Source of the DNA: Rickettsiales bacterium
Lineage (GTDB): Bacteria; Pseudomonadota; Alphaproteobacteria; Rs-D84
Direction: 5' to 3'
Assembly: GCA_031260805.1 (NCBI GenBank)
Contig: JAISKV010000009.1
Coordinates: forward strand, 1 to 50,711
Length of the DNA: 50,711 nucleotides
Shown: positions 4,555 to 43,013 of the stretch, piece after piece
How the letters are laid out: every line of letters begins with the position of its first letter
Position numbering within the stretch: position 1 is the first letter of the stretch
Program-made: the position numbers and the translations under genes
The notes under the pieces: generated by a model
Told to the model about the DNA's origin: nothing
Databases searched by the model: none
The model's input: the letters and a program-made list of their open reading frames with translations, nothing else

Positions 4555-4652
4555 AGTTGTGGGTGAAAGTGTAGGTGAAGGTGAGGGTGTAGGTGTAAAT
4601 GCGTTTGTTGCGCTCACCTTCACTTACACCTACACCTTCACTAAAAAACGGA
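4551..4652. repeat. Inverted hexamer-array hairpin between def and fmt
   Basis: Left arm: GTGAAG/GTGTAG/GTGAGG-type hexamers (4551-4600). Right arm: the reverse-complement words CACCTT/CACTTA/CACCTA (4614-4641). The loop is AT-rich with a short GTTGCGCTC segment. The array begins inside the def stop codon and ends just before the fmt ribosome-binding site (CGGAG). The same hexamer family brackets 21320-21764 and 42837-43013, and stands alone at 45235-45262. Confidence 0.85.
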
Positions 4653-16729: not shown

Positions 16730-17878
16730 CTAGAATAAAGCCGGTTGCCGCTTCGAGATATGATTATCACCGCTCATTTTGTCAAAATACAAATAATTTA
16801 GAAAATTATATGCAAAGTTGAACGATATTCGCTTTCTGTCTTTATCACGATAATTCGTCATAAACAAGGAATTATATTCCTGCCGCTTTTCTTCCAGTTC
16901 CCGATTGAATAGTTTTATAAGCTCTTCCTGTTCCGCCACAGACACAAACGAAGGAAATACAAGATTTATCTGATTACGGCTTGTTTTTATGCTAACCAGC
17001 GCGTCATATCCATATTTGCGTATATCCTCCAAACATATCTTTCCGTCATCGGTTCCCGTATCTATCGCTTTAAGAACGACTATATTATTTTTTATTATAT
17101 TCCAAGTTGTTTCATCAACTCTAAATTCGCGAATAGTATCCAAATGATTATACGCGGCTGTAATAGGATAATTTCCAATCCGCAAATCATCTTCTTCCAG
17201 CCGATATATTTTTAATTTATTTTCATATTTGTTTATCAGGGCAAGAAAATCGCCGCCAATCTGCCAATTATGATTGCGGAAAACGCGGATGTGTTTTTTC
17301 ATTTTACTGGGATAAATGGTGAAATCTATTTTCATTTGCGCCGAGAATTCGGATTTTTTGCGATAATGAAAAGCGATAACATTATAAGTCGTGTCATCAA
17401 AAACCTGTTCTGTAAAATAATTCGCTTTTATTATCTCAAATTTATCCAAAAATATCTGGCGTATGTATTTGGAGTTTTCAGCGGATAAAAAGTTTATCGG
17501 GACGATAACAATGCCTTCTTCCGAATCCATAATTTTTTCAAGCGATAGCTGATACAAATCCGTATGCTTGCTATTTTTCAGAATCGCATTATCTGACATC
17601 TTATTTTGATAAAGGTAAGGCGGATTTGTTAAAACAAATTCATATTTTTGCGGATTTTGCAATGAGTCATTTTTTTTTATGCTTTCACAAACCAACGCAT
17701 CATCTATATCAAATCCTAAAATAGAGCCAGCGCCATTTTTCTGCGCCCAATCCAGCAAATCACCGCCGCCTGCGAATGGGTCTGTTATATTCTTATTTAC
17801 AACAAAAGATTCCAGCCCCGATAAAATATAATCGGTGTTTCTAGTAAAAAACTGCCCAAATTGTTGTTTCTTGCACAT
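16730..17878 (-). CDS. Type II DNA adenine (N6) methyltransferase
   Basis: A 382-residue amino-group methyltransferase using S-adenosylmethionine. It has FGQFFT at the N-terminus (motif X), DPFAGGGDLL (motif I, SAM binding), GFDIDDAL (motif II) and the catalytic TNPPYLYQN (motif IV, NPPY), the order of gamma-class N6-adenine enzymes. The C-terminal region (about 190-382) should be the target-recognition domain. It precedes the endonuclease gene on the same strand, the usual protective order. Base composition is AT-rich. The recognition sequence cannot be read from the protein. A GGAG/AGGAA ribosome-binding site lies just before the ATG. Confidence 0.87.
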   Translation of the reverse strand: MCKKQQFGQFFTRNTDYILSGLESFVVNKNITDPFAGGGDLLDWAQKNGAGSILGFDIDDALVCESIKKNDSLQNPQKYEFVLTNPPYLYQNKMSDNAILKNSKHTDLYQLSLEKIMDSEEGIVIVPINFLSAENSKYIRQIFLDKFEIIKANYFTEQVFDDTTYNVIAFHYRKKSEFSAQMKIDFTIYPSKMKKHIRVFRNHNWQIGGDFLALINKYENKLKIYRLEEDDLRIGNYPITAAYNHLDTIREFRVDETTWNIIKNNIVVLKAIDTGTDDGKICLEDIRKYGYDALVSIKTSRNQINLVFPSFVSVAEQEELIKLFNRELEEKRQEYNSLFMTNYRDKDRKRISFNFAYNFLNYLYFDKMSGDNHISKRQPALF

Positions 17879-18006: not shown

Positions 18007-20265
18007 GAACTGTGTCTCAAACGACAGCAGGAATCGCTGCTCGCGATCATACGGCTTTTTCGTAATCGGCCAGCCCCATGAAAAATTCATCGGACCCATC
18101 GGCGTATTCCAATAAACGCCGACGCCGGCCGCTGTGCGGATTGATTCGTCAATCTCGCTGGGGATGCCATAGAAATTATTTTCTTCCGCCGGCGGGCGGC
18201 CAAGAACGCCGTAATCCATAAATACAAAGCCCTTGACCTGATATTCGTCCGGGATAAATATTGGAAAGTTCAACTGCGTTGTGCCATTCAACTTCCACAG
18301 TCCGCCCAGCGCGTATGTCGGAAACAGTATATTGCGCGATCCGACGCCCGCGATATCAAATCCGCGCAAAGATTCCCCGCCCAAAAAGTACCGGTATACG
18401 CGCGCGATATATGTGTCGGCCGGCGCCTGAATCAATCCGAATTCCAGCGTTGATTTCAATTGCCAACGGTTGTCAAAAAAGTTCACCAATCCCGTAAAAT
18501 CAGCGTTGTACCGCATAAATTCATCCGTGCTGATTCCAAATCCTGTGTATGCGGCGCCAAAATTCGCAACGATTCCCGTATGCGTGTTTTGCTGAAAATC
18601 CGTATTCAGATTATAATAGCGGAAGTTCGTCCCCAGCGTATACAGGTTCGCATTCACCCAGCCCTTGTGAATGTCATAGTTCTGATCGTACGCCGCCGAC
18701 AAACGCAAAGATTGCGACCAGTGATCGGACCATGCCCAACCCAATCGTCCGCCGATTGACAATGAATCCCTGTCATACCCATAACTGCCCAGTCTGGAAT
18801 AGTTATACATCGTGTACGATATATCAAACCCGCCGGACAATGCGCGGCCGAACAGGTATGGTTCCGTGAAACTGAACAAAGCCTGTTTTTGATACTGGGC
18901 GATGCTGCCCTTGATCTGCACGATTTGTCCGCGGCCCATAAAATTGCTTTCCGTGATTCCGGCGTCAATCATGAATCCGTTGATGTTGGACCAGCCTAGC
19001 CCGCCAGACAATTCGCCGGTAGGCTGCTCTTCCACCTTGATATCCAGATTCATCAGGTCCGTTCCGGCAACGCGCGTCGGCACCATGTCAACGCTCTTGA
19101 AAAATCTGGTGCGCATCATCCGCTGGCGGCCTTCTTCAATCGTCTGCAATGAAAAAGGATCGCCGCTGCGCATCGGCGTCTGCATTTCAATAACGCTGTC
19201 AAATGTGCGCACATTGCCGAGTATGTTTATGGAATTCAGATAAACCCGATTCGTTTTCGCAATATTGAATTTTATCCCTATCGTGCGATCGCTGTCATTC
19301 TTGACCGGCACAGGTTCCACATTGATAAAGGCATACCCTTTTTCAGCAACCGCGCCGCGCAGATTGGAAATCGTTTTTTCAATCAAGTCCACATTGTAAA
19401 TGTCGCCGGCATCAAACGCGACCGCATCCTGCAAATCATCGTCGTCAATATCCGGGAAAGGATTGTCAATAGAAACCTGGCCGAATTTATAGCGCGGCCC
19501 TTCTTCCAAATCAAACACGACAGAATACCATTTGCGGTCATGCGTAAAAGAACCGGCGGCCGATTTTATCTTTACATCCGCATAGCCGTTGCGCAGATAA
19601 AACTGGCCCAGCATCTGCTGGTCATACTTTATGCGGTCTTCGTCATAAACATCAAACGATGCCATGAATTTCCACCATGCGTATTCGCGCGAAAGTATCG
19701 CATCGCGCAGAGTGCTGGCGCGGAACGCGTGATTCCCGGTAAAGTCAATGCTGTCTATGTATGTCGGATGACCCTCGGCAATCTCAAACACGACATTCAC
19801 GCGGCCGTCGTCCGTATTTATTTTTTGCGGATTCACTGTTGTTCCGAAAATTCCCTTGCGCTGGTACAGCGCCAGTATCCGCTGGACATCGCCGCCGATA
19901 ACCGATTCGTCGTATGTCCCGCGCGCAGCGGTCCGGATTTCTTTTTTCAGATCATCCGTGCTTATCTCGTCATTGCCCTCGGTCGTGACCATGGCGATTG
20001 TCGGCGCTTCCGCCACTTTTATTTGCAGCAGCGCGCCGTTTTGCGATACTGAAACATCGCTGAATAATGAAGACGCCTGCAACTGCTTTACAATCTGGTT
20101 TATCGCATTGCTGTCCGGATTGTCGCCAACCCGAACCCCCGCCAGCAAACGCACGGATTCCGCATCCATGCGCTGGTTGCCGATGACTTCAATGCGCGAA
20201 ACAACATTCGCGCAAAGTGAAGAGTGAAAAGTGAAAAGTGAAAATATCAGTAATATTTTTTTCAT
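18004..20265 (-). CDS. bamA: Outer membrane protein assembly factor BamA
   Basis: The central Omp85 protein of the BAM complex, which inserts beta-barrel proteins into the outer membrane. It has 753 residues: a signal peptide (residues 1-19, ending SSLCA), five POTRA domains (about 20-415; for example VVSRIEVIGNQRMDAESVR and RVYLNSINILGNVRT) and a 16-strand Omp85 barrel (about 430-753). The L6 loop motif is GVGSRN/LRGFDIAGVG (the VRGF equivalent is LRGF), and it ends RFLLSFETQF with the terminal Phe of barrel proteins. The signal peptide core is encoded by a TTTTCAC heptamer array. The ATG overlaps the rseP stop by 4 bases. The presence of BamA implies a Gram-negative envelope. Confidence 0.96.
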   Translation of the reverse strand: MKKILLIFSLFTFHSSLCANVVSRIEVIGNQRMDAESVRLLAGVRVGDNPDSNAINQIVKQLQASSLFSDVSVSQNGALLQIKVAEAPTIAMVTTEGNDEISTDDLKKEIRTAARGTYDESVIGGDVQRILALYQRKGIFGTTVNPQKINTDDGRVNVVFEIAEGHPTYIDSIDFTGNHAFRASTLRDAILSREYAWWKFMASFDVYDEDRIKYDQQMLGQFYLRNGYADVKIKSAAGSFTHDRKWYSVVFDLEEGPRYKFGQVSIDNPFPDIDDDDLQDAVAFDAGDIYNVDLIEKTISNLRGAVAEKGYAFINVEPVPVKNDSDRTIGIKFNIAKTNRVYLNSINILGNVRTFDSVIEMQTPMRSGDPFSLQTIEEGRQRMMRTRFFKSVDMVPTRVAGTDLMNLDIKVEEQPTGELSGGLGWSNINGFMIDAGITESNFMGRGQIVQIKGSIAQYQKQALFSFTEPYLFGRALSGGFDISYTMYNYSRLGSYGYDRDSLSIGGRLGWAWSDHWSQSLRLSAAYDQNYDIHKGWVNANLYTLGTNFRYYNLNTDFQQNTHTGIVANFGAAYTGFGISTDEFMRYNADFTGLVNFFDNRWQLKSTLEFGLIQAPADTYIARVYRYFLGGESLRGFDIAGVGSRNILFPTYALGGLWKLNGTTQLNFPIFIPDEYQVKGFVFMDYGVLGRPPAEENNFYGIPSEIDESIRTAAGVGVYWNTPMGPMNFSWGWPITKKPYDREQRFLLSFETQF
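20212..20247. repeat. Heptamer array encoding the BamA signal-peptide core
   Basis: On the minus strand the words are TTTTCAC, TTTTCAC, TTTTCAC, TCTTCAC, TTTGCGC, giving F/S/L/T/H residues 7-18. The same word (as AAAAGTG on the other strand) is used inside uvrD and in intergenic arrays at 28366-28400 and 30552-30590. Confidence 0.9.
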
Positions 20266-21314
20266 AACTTAAATACCCGTGCGATGTCGTTCCACATGGT
20301 CAGTACGAAAATAGCGCCGATCAAGATCCATCCGCCGACCAGAATCCGCTCCATCATTTTGCCCTGCAACCGGCGCCGAATCACGCTTTCCGTACCCAGT
20401 ATTAATAAATATCCGCCATCCAGCACCGGCAGCGGCAGCAGATTCACTATCCCCAAATTCACAGACAGCAGCGCGATGATTGACAGCAATGCGAATATCC
20501 CGGCCGACAATGCCTGGCCGGAAACCTGGGCGATTGTTATAAAACTGCCCAACTGCTTTGACGACCGTTCGCCCGTGATTATTTGTTTCAGCACGACGAC
20601 CAGCGTTTTTGACTGCACCCAGACTTCCCGCGCGCCGGACCATGCGGCCTGGACTATATTTTTCCGCTGCTGGAAAGTCTTGGTCCCGTCCGCAACCATG
20701 CCCCATCTGTCCGCCGGTTCCAGTTGGACTGTAATCAGTTTTTCCCCGCGCAACAGAATTACCGTCGCGTCATCGCCGCCGGCCAAATCCTTGGCAATAA
20801 CCAATTCGCCCCAATTGCCTATCTTTTCGCCATCAATGCGCAGCACCCGGTCCCCCGCCCGAACCCCGGCGTTGTATGCGGCCGAATCACGAATAACCTG
20901 GCCCACCACCGGCGATTGAATCTGCCGCTCTTTCACCACAAACATCGTCGTGTATATCGCCCACGCCAATATAAAATTCATCGCGACGCCGGCGACCAGA
21001 ATCAAAGCCTGCTTCCAACCGCTGACCGACAGATAATGCCCGCGCTTTTGCGCCGCGGTCATTTTATTGTACTTCGCGCGGTCAAACATGTCTTCCTGGC
21101 CGTACAATTGACAATATCCGCCGAACGGAACCCAGCCCAGCCGCCATTCGCATCCGCGTTTGTCCTTCCAGCGCAGAACAGGCTTGAACCCGATGGCAAA
21201 AGCCTCTACCCGGACGCCGGACGCGCGCGCAGCCAGATAATGGCCCAGTTCGTGCACAAACACGACCATCCCCAGAACAATTATCAATGCAATTATGGTT
21301 AAGATTATATTCAT
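20262..21314 (-). CDS. rseP: RseP-type site-2 zinc metalloprotease
   Basis: An intramembrane protease of the RseP/S2P family that cleaves anti-sigma factors or remnant signal peptides within the membrane. It has 350 residues. The zinc motif HELGH (21-25) is in the first transmembrane helix, GVRVEAFAIGFKP follows, and one PDZ domain (about 125-200, GQVIRDSAAYNAGVRAGDRVL) is visible. The third zinc ligand is in LLPLPVLDGG (about residue 298). E. coli RseP has two PDZ domains and about 450 residues; the single-PDZ form is common in alphaproteobacteria. Its ATG overlaps the stop of the four-helix-bundle gene by 4 bases, and its stop overlaps bamA. Confidence 0.93.
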   Translation of the reverse strand: MNIILTIIALIIVLGMVVFVHELGHYLAARASGVRVEAFAIGFKPVLRWKDKRGCEWRLGWVPFGGYCQLYGQEDMFDRAKYNKMTAAQKRGHYLSVSGWKQALILVAGVAMNFILAWAIYTTMFVVKERQIQSPVVGQVIRDSAAYNAGVRAGDRVLRIDGEKIGNWGELVIAKDLAGGDDATVILLRGEKLITVQLEPADRWGMVADGTKTFQQRKNIVQAAWSGAREVWVQSKTLVVVLKQIITGERSSKQLGSFITIAQVSGQALSAGIFALLSIIALLSVNLGIVNLLPLPVLDGGYLLILGTESVIRRRLQGKMMERILVGGWILIGAIFVLTMWNDIARVFKL

Positions 21315-21700
21315 AGTTTATCTCTTTGTGTAGGTGCAGGTGTAGGTGTATGGCCAAGACTATTTATTAAGCCTGTTAACATTCTGCAAATTTTATTAAG
21401 TTGATCTGTCAGCCTGATATAAGTTTCATTATCAATAAAACCTAGTTTATGCGATATTTTCATCTGACATCTTAATTCTGCCGCCGATCCCTTGGATATG
21501 CCTACAAAATGCCTGTATTCGTTAGATGTGTTTCTTGATGCGCCTTCTGCCAAATTAGAAGTTATTGATACCACCGCTCGTTTCATCTGCGATACCAACC
21601 CAAACATTTCACTTTTTGGGAATGTATCCATAATTTTATATACATCAACTGCGGTATCTATACCAAGATTATAAACATCTAAATCTTCAACTGATTTCAT
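21311..21700 (-). CDS. Four-helix-bundle protein (23S rRNA intervening-sequence / S23 type)
   Basis: A 129-residue protein from the ATG at 21700 (MKSVEDLDVYNLGIDTAVDV). The pattern of an N-terminal helix, FPKSEMFGLVSQMKRAVVSI, TSNLAEGASRNTSNEYRHF, GSAAELRCQM and YIRLTDQLNKICRMLTGLI is diagnostic of the S23/IVS four-helix-bundle family. These are usually encoded within intervening sequences in 23S rRNA, with relatives acting as accessory factors of diversity-generating retroelements. Here it sits between cdsA and rseP, where dxr is normal. The last 15 or so residues (HTPTPAPTQ region) are encoded by the flanking hexamer repeat, and the stop overlaps the rseP start as ATGA. A longer start at 21796 would only translate the repeat (GVGESVGESEG) and is rejected. 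The function is unknown; RNA binding is suggested by the family. Confidence 0.88.
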   Translation of the reverse strand: MKSVEDLDVYNLGIDTAVDVYKIMDTFPKSEMFGLVSQMKRAVVSITSNLAEGASRNTSNEYRHFVGISKGSAAELRCQMKISHKLGFIDNETYIRLTDQLNKICRMLTGLINSLGHTPTPAPTQRDKL

Positions 21701-21764
21701 ACCCACACCTTCACCTACACCTTCACTTTCACCTACACTTTCACCTACACCTACAACACCATCA
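21320..21764. mobile_element. IVS-like element: S23-type gene between inverted hexamer arrays
   Basis: The left array GTGTAG/GTGCAG (21325-21352) and the right array CACCTA/CACCTT/CACTTT (21703-21764) are in inverted orientation and complementary, so the RNA could fold with the four-helix-bundle ORF in the loop. This mirrors the stem-loop plan of 23S rRNA intervening sequences. The cdsA stop codon lies within the right array and the rseP ribosome-binding site starts at the end of the left one. That it is mobile is inferred from this arrangement; no transposase is encoded. Confidence 0.55.
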
Positions 21765-22419
21765 CCAGCCATGTTATCGGCAGAACGAAAATCCACCCGT
21801 CAAAGCGATCCAGCGCGCCGCCGTGTCCAGGCAGAATATTGCTGTAATCTTTAATCCCCAATTTTCTTTTTATCGCGGATGCCGCCAGATCCCCGTACTG
21901 CGACAACAATGAAACGCTGATTCCAATCCACATCAATTGCGGCATGAATTGGGCGTACGCCAAATGCCCCGCTTGCAAAGCGGTGCCGATGTACCCGTAC
22001 AAGACCGCGCCAAGCGTTCCGCATACAATTCCCGCAACCTGTCCCGACCAAGTCTTGCCCGGGCTGACCGACGGCCACATTTTTTCGCCGCCAAAGAATT
22101 TTCCGAAAAACCACGCGCCGATGTCTGCAAAACTTATCGTCATCAACAGCAGCAGGATTATCCAAGGCCGTGTCCCGACCATGTATGCGGAAACAATAAA
22201 GATCAAAGAATAAAGAATAAAAAGCATCAGTTGCCGGCCATTTATTCTTTTATCTTTATTCTTTATTATTTTCCATATCAGTTCTGCGCTGCAAACCACG
22301 GCGACCACCGCGCACAGCCAGCGCACCGCCGGCGCGCCAAAGTATTCGGCAATAACCGCCCCCGCGCCAACCAAGACCATAACGCCGGCCGTCAGAATTC
22401 TTTTAATCGTTTCGCTCAT
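21751..22419 (-). CDS. cdsA: Phosphatidate cytidylyltransferase
   Basis: Makes CDP-diacylglycerol from phosphatidate and CTP, the branch point of phospholipid synthesis, in the inner membrane. It has 222 residues from the ATG at 22419 (MSETIKRILTAG); the upstream frame reads through uppS. It has about 6-7 transmembrane helices. The family signature SAIKRKLGIKDYSNILPGHGG, continuing into LDRFDG, is complete. It is shorter than E. coli CdsA (285). Residues about 48-74 (KIIKNKDKRINGRQ then LMLFILYSLIFIV) are encoded by two heptamer arrays in inverted orientation, so a cytoplasmic loop and the following helix are partly repeat-made. The start overlaps uppS (ATGA). Confidence 0.94.
   Translation of the reverse strand: MSETIKRILTAGVMVLVGAGAVIAEYFGAPAVRWLCAVVAVVCSAELIWKIIKNKDKRINGRQLMLFILYSLIFIVSAYMVGTRPWIILLLLMTISFADIGAWFFGKFFGGEKMWPSVSPGKTWSGQVAGIVCGTLGAVLYGYIGTALQAGHLAYAQFMPQLMWIGISVSLLSQYGDLAASAIKRKLGIKDYSNILPGHGGALDRFDGWIFVLPITWLVMVL
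22199..22277. repeat. Inverted pair of heptamer arrays inside cdsA
   Basis: Left part AAGAATA words (22199-22228) and right part TTATTCT/TTTATCT words (22243-22277), separated by about 15 bases. The pair is complementary, so the cdsA mRNA itself could form a long hairpin, and both arms stay open in the cdsA frame. Confidence 0.8.
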
Positions 22420-23291: not shown

Positions 23292-23438
23292 ATGAAAAAA
23301 CTCGCTTTACTTGGATTGGTCATTGTGGCCTTGGCTGGTTGCGGCCAGGTTTATGACAGATCACCGGTTGGCGTCGGATATGACAGCAATGAACTGAAAT
23401 TGTCACCTTGCGCCTGCATGCTGGTGTACAATGCGTAA
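23292..23438 (+). CDS. Small lipoprotein (48 residues)
   Basis: A very short gene with strong expression signals. The signal peptide MKKLALLGLVIVALAGC has a lipobox LAGC, with lipidation expected at C17. The mature part is only about 32 residues (GQVYDRSPVGVGYDSNEL then KLSPCACMLVYNA), with a CAC motif near the end. It resembles in size and design the lipoprotein at 26063-26212, and both may be entericidin-like or abundant small envelope lipoproteins. No family was recognised. It may drive transcription into the VirB8-like genes downstream unless the inverted repeat at 23440-23552 stops it. Confidence 0.8.
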   Translation: MKKLALLGLVIVALAGCGQVYDRSPVGVGYDSNELKLSPCACMLVYNA

Positions 23439-23439
23439 A

Positions 23440-23552
23440 CTAGTTATTAGTTGTTAGTTATTAATTATTATACCATTGTGCGCGCCGCGACAATTCCGCC
23501 ACCACAAACAAAAGTATAATAACTAAAAATTAATAACTAATAATTAATTATT
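23440..23552. repeat. Inverted heptamer arrays (TTAGTTA / TAACTAA)
   Basis: Left arm TTAGTTA, TTAGTTG, TTAGTTA, TTAATTA (23442-23472). Right arm TAACTAA, TTAATAACTAATAATTAATTA (23517-23549). The loop is about 45 bases. It fills the whole gap between the lipoprotein and the first VirB8-like gene. Confidence 0.85.
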
Positions 23553-39128: not shown

Positions 39129-39146
39129 GTATTTGCTCCTTGCAGT

Positions 39147-39290
39147 CGCAAATAGTGAATAATGAATAGTGAATAATGAATAATGTTTGCGCTCGCTTTG
39201 CTCGCAGCAATATTATTTATTATTTTTTATTCTTTCTTCACTTTTGCTTGCTGAACAACTATTCATTGTTCATTATTCATTATTCATTAA
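39147..39290. repeat. Inverted heptamer arrays between rplL and rpoB
   Basis: Left arm: GTGAATA/ATGAATA words (39150-39184). Right arm: TTCATTG/TTCATTA words (39259-39289). The middle contains GCGCTCGC and further TTATTTT words. The arms are complementary over about 30 bases. The 189-base gap between rplL and rpoB contains nothing else except the hairpin at 39289-39324. Confidence 0.88.
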
Positions 39291-39681: not shown

Positions 39682-39698
39682 TTATTACTCCGTAATAA
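39682..39698 (-). promoter_or_regulatory. Ribosome-binding-site hairpin of rplL
   Basis: A 7-base stem TTATTAC / GTAATAA closes on GGA, so the Shine-Dalgarno GGAG is in the loop, 7 bases before the ATG. An identical copy precedes rplK at 41690-41706. Confidence 0.55.
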
Positions 39699-39829
39699 TT
39701 AAGAATTAAGAATCCGGAATTTAAGAATTATTTCTTAAATCAAAGATTAAAATTCATTGTTGTTTTGCAAGAACCAAGATAAGAACCAAGAACAAAAATT
39801 CTTAATCCTTAATTATTGATTCTTAATTT
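39694..39829. repeat. Inverted heptamer arrays between rplJ and rplL
   Basis: Left arm: AATTAAG/GAATTAAG words (39694-39731). Right arm: TTCTTAA words (39797-39829). Between them is an AAGAACC/AAGATAA word array (39767-39792). The arms are complementary. The whole rplJ-rplL gap is made of this. Confidence 0.85.
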
Positions 39830-42623: not shown

Positions 42624-42836
42624 AAAACTTTTTACCTAATGTTTTCAACACCAAACCTGTCCGTCTTTGTTCGCCAGGGGCGAATGCGACACTGGCAAAA
42701 CTTCCATTTTTGCCGAAAAACCGCGAAAATTCAACCAATTCTTGCCACAAGTTCGTTCAGTTTAACACAATTTTTTATAAAATCAAGCGCAAATATTATA
42801 TATTTTTATCCCGCCCAGCGCAAGGGGAAAGTAGTT

Positions 42837-43013
42837 TAAGTGCAGGTGAAGGTGAAAGTGTAGGTGTAGGTGGAGATGAAAGTTAAATGCGTCGTCATTC
42901 AAGCACCGAACAACACCCCGTCGTCATCCCAGCCTGCGCGGGAATGACGACAGGAGATGGCCTTCACCTTCACCTACACCTACACTTTCACCTTCACCTA
43001 CACTTTTTTCGCT
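42837..43013. repeat. Nested repeat: hexamer hairpin with a GTCATCCC palindrome in its loop
   Basis: Left arm: GTGCAG/GTGAAG/GTGAAA/GTGTAG hexamers (42840-42880). Right arm: CACCTT/CACCTA/CACTTT hexamers (42961-43005). Within the loop lies CGTCGTCATCCC ... GGGAATGACGACA (42919-42952), a short member of the CATCGTCA family. The 447-base gap between tRNA-Trp and the virB8 gene contains this element. Otherwise there is only AT-rich DNA that probably includes the tRNA-secE promoter (a TTGATT...TAAACT match at 42759-42786 on the minus strand, weak). Confidence 0.85.

What the first reader, a model, noticed from the sequence alone, without database searches (positions are those of the whole stretch)
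21311..21764. A 23S-rRNA intervening-sequence type gene living in an mRNA operon
An S23-like four-helix-bundle gene, bracketed by inverted hexamer arrays that could pair into a stem with the ORF in the loop, sits inside uppS-cdsA-rseP-bamA. The cdsA stop lies in one arm, and the gene's stop overlaps the rseP start. This copies the layout of rRNA intervening sequences, but in an essential envelope operon, and with flanks belonging to the genome's own word-repeat system. It raises the idea that such proteins act on, or spread with, these hairpins, for example by binding them or guiding RNase III cutting.
Basis: partly seen in the sequence, partly recalled or inferred. Interest (0 to 1): 0.82.

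Follow-up and report, generated by a model that had tools for sequence, protein, structure and literature searches.

The report
Hairpin-flanked S23 gene in an operon
A small protein gene known mainly from "intervening sequences" in ribosomal RNA sits here between two essential envelope genes inside a hairpin of repeated short DNA words, and the same gene-plus-hairpin design, often with gene-less hairpin copies nearby, turns up across many bacterial phyla, pointing to an overlooked family of mobile or replicating elements.

Summary
The window gene (21311-21700, minus) is a PF05635/TIGR02436 S23-type four-helix-bundle gene between cdsA and rseP, bracketed by inverted hexamer arrays. All five S23 genes of this genome have such arms, each with a different word. 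Of 174 S23 loci from many phyla, 72% have matching inverted arms (mismatched partners: 3%), usually 7-nt words; none of 100 loci checked lies in rRNA. Most relatives have an empty cdsA-rseP junction; one sister genus carries the same insertion with both arms changed to another word. ORF-less hairpins were found almost only in S23-bearing relatives (68 with loops up to 150 nt in 910 kb, against 0 in 584 kb), and many share a word with an S23 gene of the same genome. The protein is under strong purifying selection (dN/dS about 0.06). Best reading: an IVS-type element living in mRNA operons, working like the RAYT-REPIN pair: each S23 protein serves its own word-hairpin family, but without a transposase domain. 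Hairpin binding, RNase III cutting and the transposition chemistry are inferred, not shown. I found no published link between S23 genes and heptamer hairpin families.

The parts
21311..21700 (-). S23-type (23S_rRNA_IVP, PF05635) four-helix-bundle gene, 129 aa
   Evidence: AlphaFold model pLDDT 92, nearest solved structure 2gsc
21701..21755 (-). 5' arm in gene sense: about 9 copies of a GTGTAG/GTGAAG-type hexamer; carries the cdsA stop codon
21328..21350 (-). 3' arm in gene sense: about 4 copies of the reverse-complement hexamer, overlapping the S23 3' coding end
21318..21757 (-). whole element (about 415-440 nt) inserted between cdsA stop and rseP start; the same junction is 11-38 nt in most relatives
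21751..22419 (-). cdsA (upstream neighbour; its stop lies in the 5' arm)
20262..21314 (-). rseP (downstream neighbour; its start overlaps the S23 stop)
4561..4641 (.). ORF-less word hairpin with the same GTGTAG/GTGAAG word as the S23 arms
   Evidence: fold z=-7.9
42832..43005 (.). ORF-less word hairpin with the same GTGTAG/GTGAAG word as the S23 arms
   Evidence: score 61 to the S23 flank
23437..23549 (.). ORF-less word hairpin with the TTAGTTA word of another S23 gene of this genome (L005, secA/dnaE junction)
   Evidence: fold z=-7.7
22185..22275 (-). ORF-less word hairpin (AATAAAG word) inside the cdsA coding sequence, at a segment that varies between relatives

Best explanation
The feature is a compact mobile or formerly mobile element of the IVS kind: word array, S23 gene, reverse-complement word array, set into the stop-start gap of a host operon in sense orientation, so that it is transcribed and translated with the operon. 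The two arms can pair into a stem of about 30 bp with the ORF in the loop. I propose that the S23 protein (a pentamer in solved relatives, the same fold as the DGR protein Avd) recognises the hairpin of its own word, as RNA or single-stranded DNA, and that this drives the keeping and spread of the full element and of ORF-less hairpins with the same word, as RAYT proteins do for REPINs. S23 has no nuclease or transposase domain, so the cutting and joining would fall to host enzymes. Shown: architecture, arm-to-arm matching, insertion against empty sites, concerted word change in both arms, co-occurrence of ORF-less hairpins with S23, word sharing, purifying selection. Inferred: hairpin binding, action in trans, host enzymes, RNase III cutting.
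For: 5/5 S23 genes of the genome are bracketed by inverted word arrays, each with another word. 31/33 family-level loci, most loci across the phylum, 44/77 loci from many phyla above a matched 99th-percentile control and 10/11 named cyanobacterial plasmid loci have arms. Own-arm match 72% against 3% for mismatched partners, n=174. Word period 7 in 78/95, 8 in 11, 6 in 6; the 5' arm is G-rich in 90%. Empty cdsA-rseP sites in most relatives; the G000 and G001 insertions carry different but internally matched words; G024 has an ORF-less hairpin at the same junction. Elements at two Bradyrhizobium-like sites align over element and arms, not flanks, with a 7-mer turned 8-mer in the copies of both arms. 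Hairpin pairs: 89 in 910 kb of S23+ relatives, 1 in 584 kb of S23- relatives. ORF-less hairpins share the word of a same-genome S23 gene in about 27 of 47 cases, always in the same polarity. Where both neighbours are co-directional, S23 is sense 100: antisense 5. dN/dS about 0.06. Fold matches 2gsc, 2rld and DGR Avd.
Against: No new insertion was seen within one strain and no target duplication was found, so movement is inferred from empty sites. About 20 of 47 ORF-less hairpins in this genome carry words with no S23 gene here. A few S23 genes (L027, L045, several CRISPR-linked ones) lack clear arms. S23+ and S23- genomes are related within genera, so the co-occurrence counts are not independent; in the Bradyrhizobium-like genus ORF-less hairpins are rare. 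dN/dS of 0.06 and long vertical persistence suggest a host-useful or domesticated function as well.
Confidence: 0.6

Rival explanations
1. S23 genes are passengers: some other process (replication slippage plus hairpin-templated copying by host polymerases) makes inverted word arrays, and S23 ORFs merely land in or are tolerated inside their loops.
For: Orphan word families without an S23 gene exist in this genome; words differ from locus to locus; array copy number varies at orthologous sites, as expected from slippage.
Against: S23-less relatives are almost free of such hairpins; hairpin words match the S23 genes of the same genome better than those of other genomes; related S23 proteins at different sites share words.
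Confidence: 0.2
2. An ordinary conserved operon gene with a regulatory hairpin: S23 is a host RNA-binding protein, and the arms act in translation coupling, transcript processing by RNase III, or autoregulation, without mobility.
For: Sense orientation 100:5, strong purifying selection and long vertical persistence at one site in a genus, arms abutting stop and start codons in all five loci.
Against: Empty orthologous junctions in most relatives, several S23 genes at unrelated operons within one genome, the same element at two sites with unrelated flanks, ORF-less copies.
Confidence: 0.13
3. A retroelement driven by a reverse transcriptase, with S23 as an Avd-like partner.
For: Fold similarity to Avd in DGR ribonucleoproteins; the genome has a 350-aa reverse transcriptase; words look as if copied from a template.
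Against: RT does not track S23 in the family (10/18 S23+ against 16/42 S23-, p=0.26); Avd model score far below its cut-off (31.5 against 80).
Confidence: 0.05
4. Chance low-complexity sequence around an unrelated small gene.
For: The window locus alone scores just below the 99.9th percentile of random intervals.
Against: Replicated at most S23 loci in many phyla, with word-specific arm matching.
Confidence: 0.01

Closest known systems
23S rRNA intervening sequence (IVS) with S23p ORF, e.g. Coxiella burnetii helix 45 (PMC4990558)
   Same: S23 ORF in the loop of a long stem; element of 428-444 nt against about 415-440 nt here; 28-bp stem and tandem heptamers (GACAGAT) next to the ORF in Coxiella
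   Different: Here in a protein-coding operon, not rRNA (0 of 100 S23 loci tested are in rRNA); several copies per genome with different words; ORF-less satellite hairpins; RNase III excision not tested
REPIN-RAYT system (PMC8049555, PMC3116915)
   Same: A conserved gene plus a population of short hairpins without ORF; hairpins commoner in genomes that hold the gene; vertical persistence; purifying selection
   Different: S23 has no tyrosine-transposase domain; Y1_Tnp is absent from this genome and nearly so from its family; hairpin arms are tandem 6-8-nt words that change between loci; several S23 genes per genome and some on plasmids
Heptamer repeats of unknown origin: cyanobacterial STRRs, Xanthomonas GGGAATC inverted pairs (PMC4692102), Beggiatoaceae TAACTGA (PMC4679880)
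   Same: Tandem heptamers in intergenic regions, in Xanthomonas and here often as convergent inverted pairs
   Different: Those reports name no S23 gene; the TAACTGA paper only suggests that a repeat-binding protein could be the mobile element
DGR accessory protein Avd (4dwl, 8ub7)
   Same: Four-helix-bundle fold (Foldseek probability 1.00)
   Different: About 10% identity, below the Avd cut-off, no linked reverse transcriptase

Membership tests
S23 / 23S_rRNA_IVP four-helix-bundle family (PF05635, TIGR02436) | Profile match above curated cut-off | tested here: met
   117.4 bits against 33.8; 114.2 against 24
S23 / 23S_rRNA_IVP four-helix-bundle family (PF05635, TIGR02436) | Four-helix bundle fold of 2gsc/2rld | tested here: met
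   model pLDDT 92; 2gsc TM 0.86, rmsd 1.3
S23 / 23S_rRNA_IVP four-helix-bundle family (PF05635, TIGR02436) | Homopentamer | not testable with these tools
   2gsc and 2rld each have five chains; only a monomer could be predicted here
rRNA intervening sequence (IVS) | Lies in 23S rRNA | tested here: not met
   between cdsA and rseP; no rRNA at L002
rRNA intervening sequence (IVS) | Terminal inverted repeats that form a stem with the ORF in the loop | tested here: met
   G001 ortholog
rRNA intervening sequence (IVS) | Excision by RNase III without religation | not testable with these tools
   needs RNA data
REPIN-RAYT | Tyrosine (Y1) transposase encoded by the gene | tested here: not met
   S23 matches only S23-type and Avd-like profiles; no Y1_Tnp in the own genome
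REPIN-RAYT | Short ORF-less hairpins related to the gene's flanks, commoner in genomes with the gene | tested here: met
DGR Avd | Avd equivalog score and a linked DGR RT | tested here: not met
   31.5 bits against 80; the genome's RT lies on another contig; template/variable repeats were not searched for

The most novel reading that the evidence does not exclude
A bacteria-wide class of replicating hairpin elements whose only protein is a non-catalytic S23 pentamer that recognises short tandem words: each S23 gene is master of its own word family, rRNA IVSs are a special case, and the long-unexplained heptamer repeats of cyanobacteria and Xanthomonas are its ORF-less satellites.
Probability: 0.4. 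Interest if true: 0.93.

Novelty: new variant of a known kind. Interest (0 to 1): 0.86.

Why it matters
S23 ("four helix bundle protein") genes are widespread and without known function, and the origin of rRNA intervening sequences and of heptamer repeats in bacteria is an old open question. The link found here gives all three one testable explanation, with exact predictions: which hairpins belong to which S23 gene, that the protein binds its word, and that hairpins decline in lineages that lose it. It also suggests that the family name misleads, since most sampled members are not in rRNA.

Tried and rejected
A reverse transcriptase as driver: the genome has one, but RT presence does not follow S23. 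A Y1/RAYT transposase: absent from the genome. Most S23 loci being rRNA insertions: 0 of 100. A single conserved core word: AG, TAG and GTGA are only mildly enriched over shuffled words; period and G-rich polarity are the constants. Other gene families regularly found in such loops: none seen beyond S23; the remaining large loops were pairs between separate hairpins or unrelated genes. Phage carriage: no match. Xanthomonas XCC0516 flanks: no Xanthomonas genome appeared in the sample drawn. The first strict array-pair finder missed the S23 loci and was replaced.

Full report
WHAT IS THERE. The window is contig C9 of a 729-kb genome. Between cdsA and rseP, on the minus strand, lies a 129-aa gene at 21311-21700 that matches PF05635 (E=4e-34) and TIGR02436. 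Its stop overlaps the rseP start. A hexamer array (GTGTAG/GTGAAG type) lies just upstream at 21701-21755 and its inverted counterpart at 21328-21350. The cdsA stop codon is part of the upstream array. The RNA of the element folds better than shuffles (z=-3.4). Taken alone the arm match (score 32) is near the 99.9th percentile of random intervals of this genome (36), so the case rests on replication.

REPLICATION IN THE GENOME. There are five S23 genes, at five operon junctions: yidC/dnaX, cdsA/rseP, macA/macB, gspE/gspF and secA/dnaE (gene names from the translations, by my own knowledge). All five are bracketed by inverted word arrays, each with a different word, and all five point the way of their operon. 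In each, the 5' arm abuts or contains the upstream stop codon and the 3' arm ends within about 17 nt of the downstream start. At yidC the array encodes the protein's last residues.

REPLICATION OUTSIDE. In 33 S23 loci of the genome and its relatives, 31 have arms scoring 29 or more. Further sets from the phylum, a Bradyrhizobium-size genus, many phyla (44 of 77 above the 99th percentile of matched displaced intervals) and named cyanobacterial plasmids (10 of 11) agree. Over 174 loci a locus's two flanks match each other at score 30 or more in 72% of cases, against 3% when partners are swapped. The word length is 7 in 78 of 95, 8 in 11, 6 in 6, and the 5' arm is G-rich in 90%. None of 100 S23 loci scanned lies in rRNA.

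INSERTION AND WORD CHANGE. At the cdsA-rseP junction 22 of 29 relatives have only 11-38 nt. G000 and G001 have the S23 element there; their proteins are 61% identical, and the words differ (GTGTAG against AGTGCA), yet each pair of arms matches within its own genome. G024 has an ORF-less word hairpin at this junction, and G004 has two plus another ORF; three others have a NUDIX-like gene or its remnant. In the Bradyrhizobium-like genus two S23 sites align over the element and its arms but not over the flanks, and the word differs by one G (GTAGGCA, GTAGGGCA). At non-orthologous sites, words are similar when the proteins are 60% or more identical (30% of pairs) and rarely otherwise (under 1%); many of these pairs come from the two Bradyrhizobium-like sites, but four other sets (L035/L037/L049, L070/L108, L123/L148, L043/L053) show the same.

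ORF-LESS HAIRPINS. A finder for inverted word-array pairs gave 89 in 910 kb from 16 S23-bearing family members and 1 in 584 kb from 18 S23-less ones. Counting only loops of 150 nt or less, which excludes the S23-bearing pairs, it is 68 against 0. Genomes within a genus are related, so these are not independent counts; by genome it is 12 of 16 against 1 of 18 (Fisher p=5e-5). In the own genome 47 ORF-less hairpins were found in 617 kb; about 27 match the arm word of one of its five S23 genes, always in the same polarity, and the rest fall into orphan words such as AATTAAG. The window's own word recurs at 4561-4641 and 42832-43005. Two of three 50-kb stretches of Nostoc/Trichormus plasmids also hold ORF-less hairpins, some with the S23 word GGAGTCA.

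THE PROTEIN. The model (pLDDT 92) matches 2gsc and 2rld, each with five chains in its crystal, and then the DGR protein Avd in reverse-transcriptase complexes. There is no catalytic domain. dN/dS is about 0.06 in 186 orthologous pairs, so the protein is under strong selection.

HOW IT MOST LIKELY WORKS. The element is read in sense with its operon (100 sense against 5 antisense where both neighbours are co-directional). I infer that the protein binds the hairpin of its own word and helps keep and multiply full and ORF-less copies, with host enzymes doing the chemistry. This is the RAYT-REPIN logic (PMC8049555) with another protein. The passenger and plain-operon-gene readings remain open, the first because of orphan words, the second because of strong purifying selection.

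WHAT IS KNOWN. Coxiella's 23S IVS has the same anatomy, down to heptamers beside the S23 ORF and a 28-bp stem cut by RNase III (PMC4990558). Heptamer repeats, some as inverted pairs, are described in Xanthomonas (PMC4692102) and Beggiatoaceae (PMC4679880), without S23 being named. Nine literature searches in open-access papers found no report tying S23 genes to heptamer hairpins; most subscription journals are not covered, so prior description cannot be excluded.

Noticed in passing
L384 and L385 (plasmids of Anabaena sp. 90, Pseudanabaena galeata); L114, L117, L164: S23 genes inside or next to CRISPR loci: between cas6 and cas4 (type I-D in Anabaena sp. 90) with heptamer arms on the plasmids, and near CRISPR-DR7 repeats in three other genomes, there mostly with weak or no arms.
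   Followed up: partly
L322:145-1197 (own genome, contig C12, minus): A 350-aa reverse transcriptase with an IGNLxSQ motif resembling DGR-type RTs; no S23 gene beside it.
   Followed up: partly
L050 (relative G004): An S23 frame that runs through its 3' word arm into a prepilin-like gene, giving a 270-aa fusion frame.
   Followed up: no
L001 (own genome, yidC end): The C-terminal residues of YidC (RNSGLVLGTRK) are encoded by the word array of the inserted S23 element.
   Followed up: no
L200, L209, L205 (relatives G014, G006, G009): A NUDIX-like gene sits at the cdsA-rseP junction in two relatives and looks decayed in a third.
   Followed up: no
window 39144-39289, 39686-39817 and other own-genome loci: Orphan word families (AATTAAG, AATGAAT, AAAGTGA) form hairpins but match no S23 gene of this genome; AATTAAG resembles an S23 arm of relative G002 (L308).
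   Followed up: partly
window 16730-17878 minus: A methyltransferase-like ORF (FVLTNPPYLYQN motif) just downstream of bamA.
   Followed up: no
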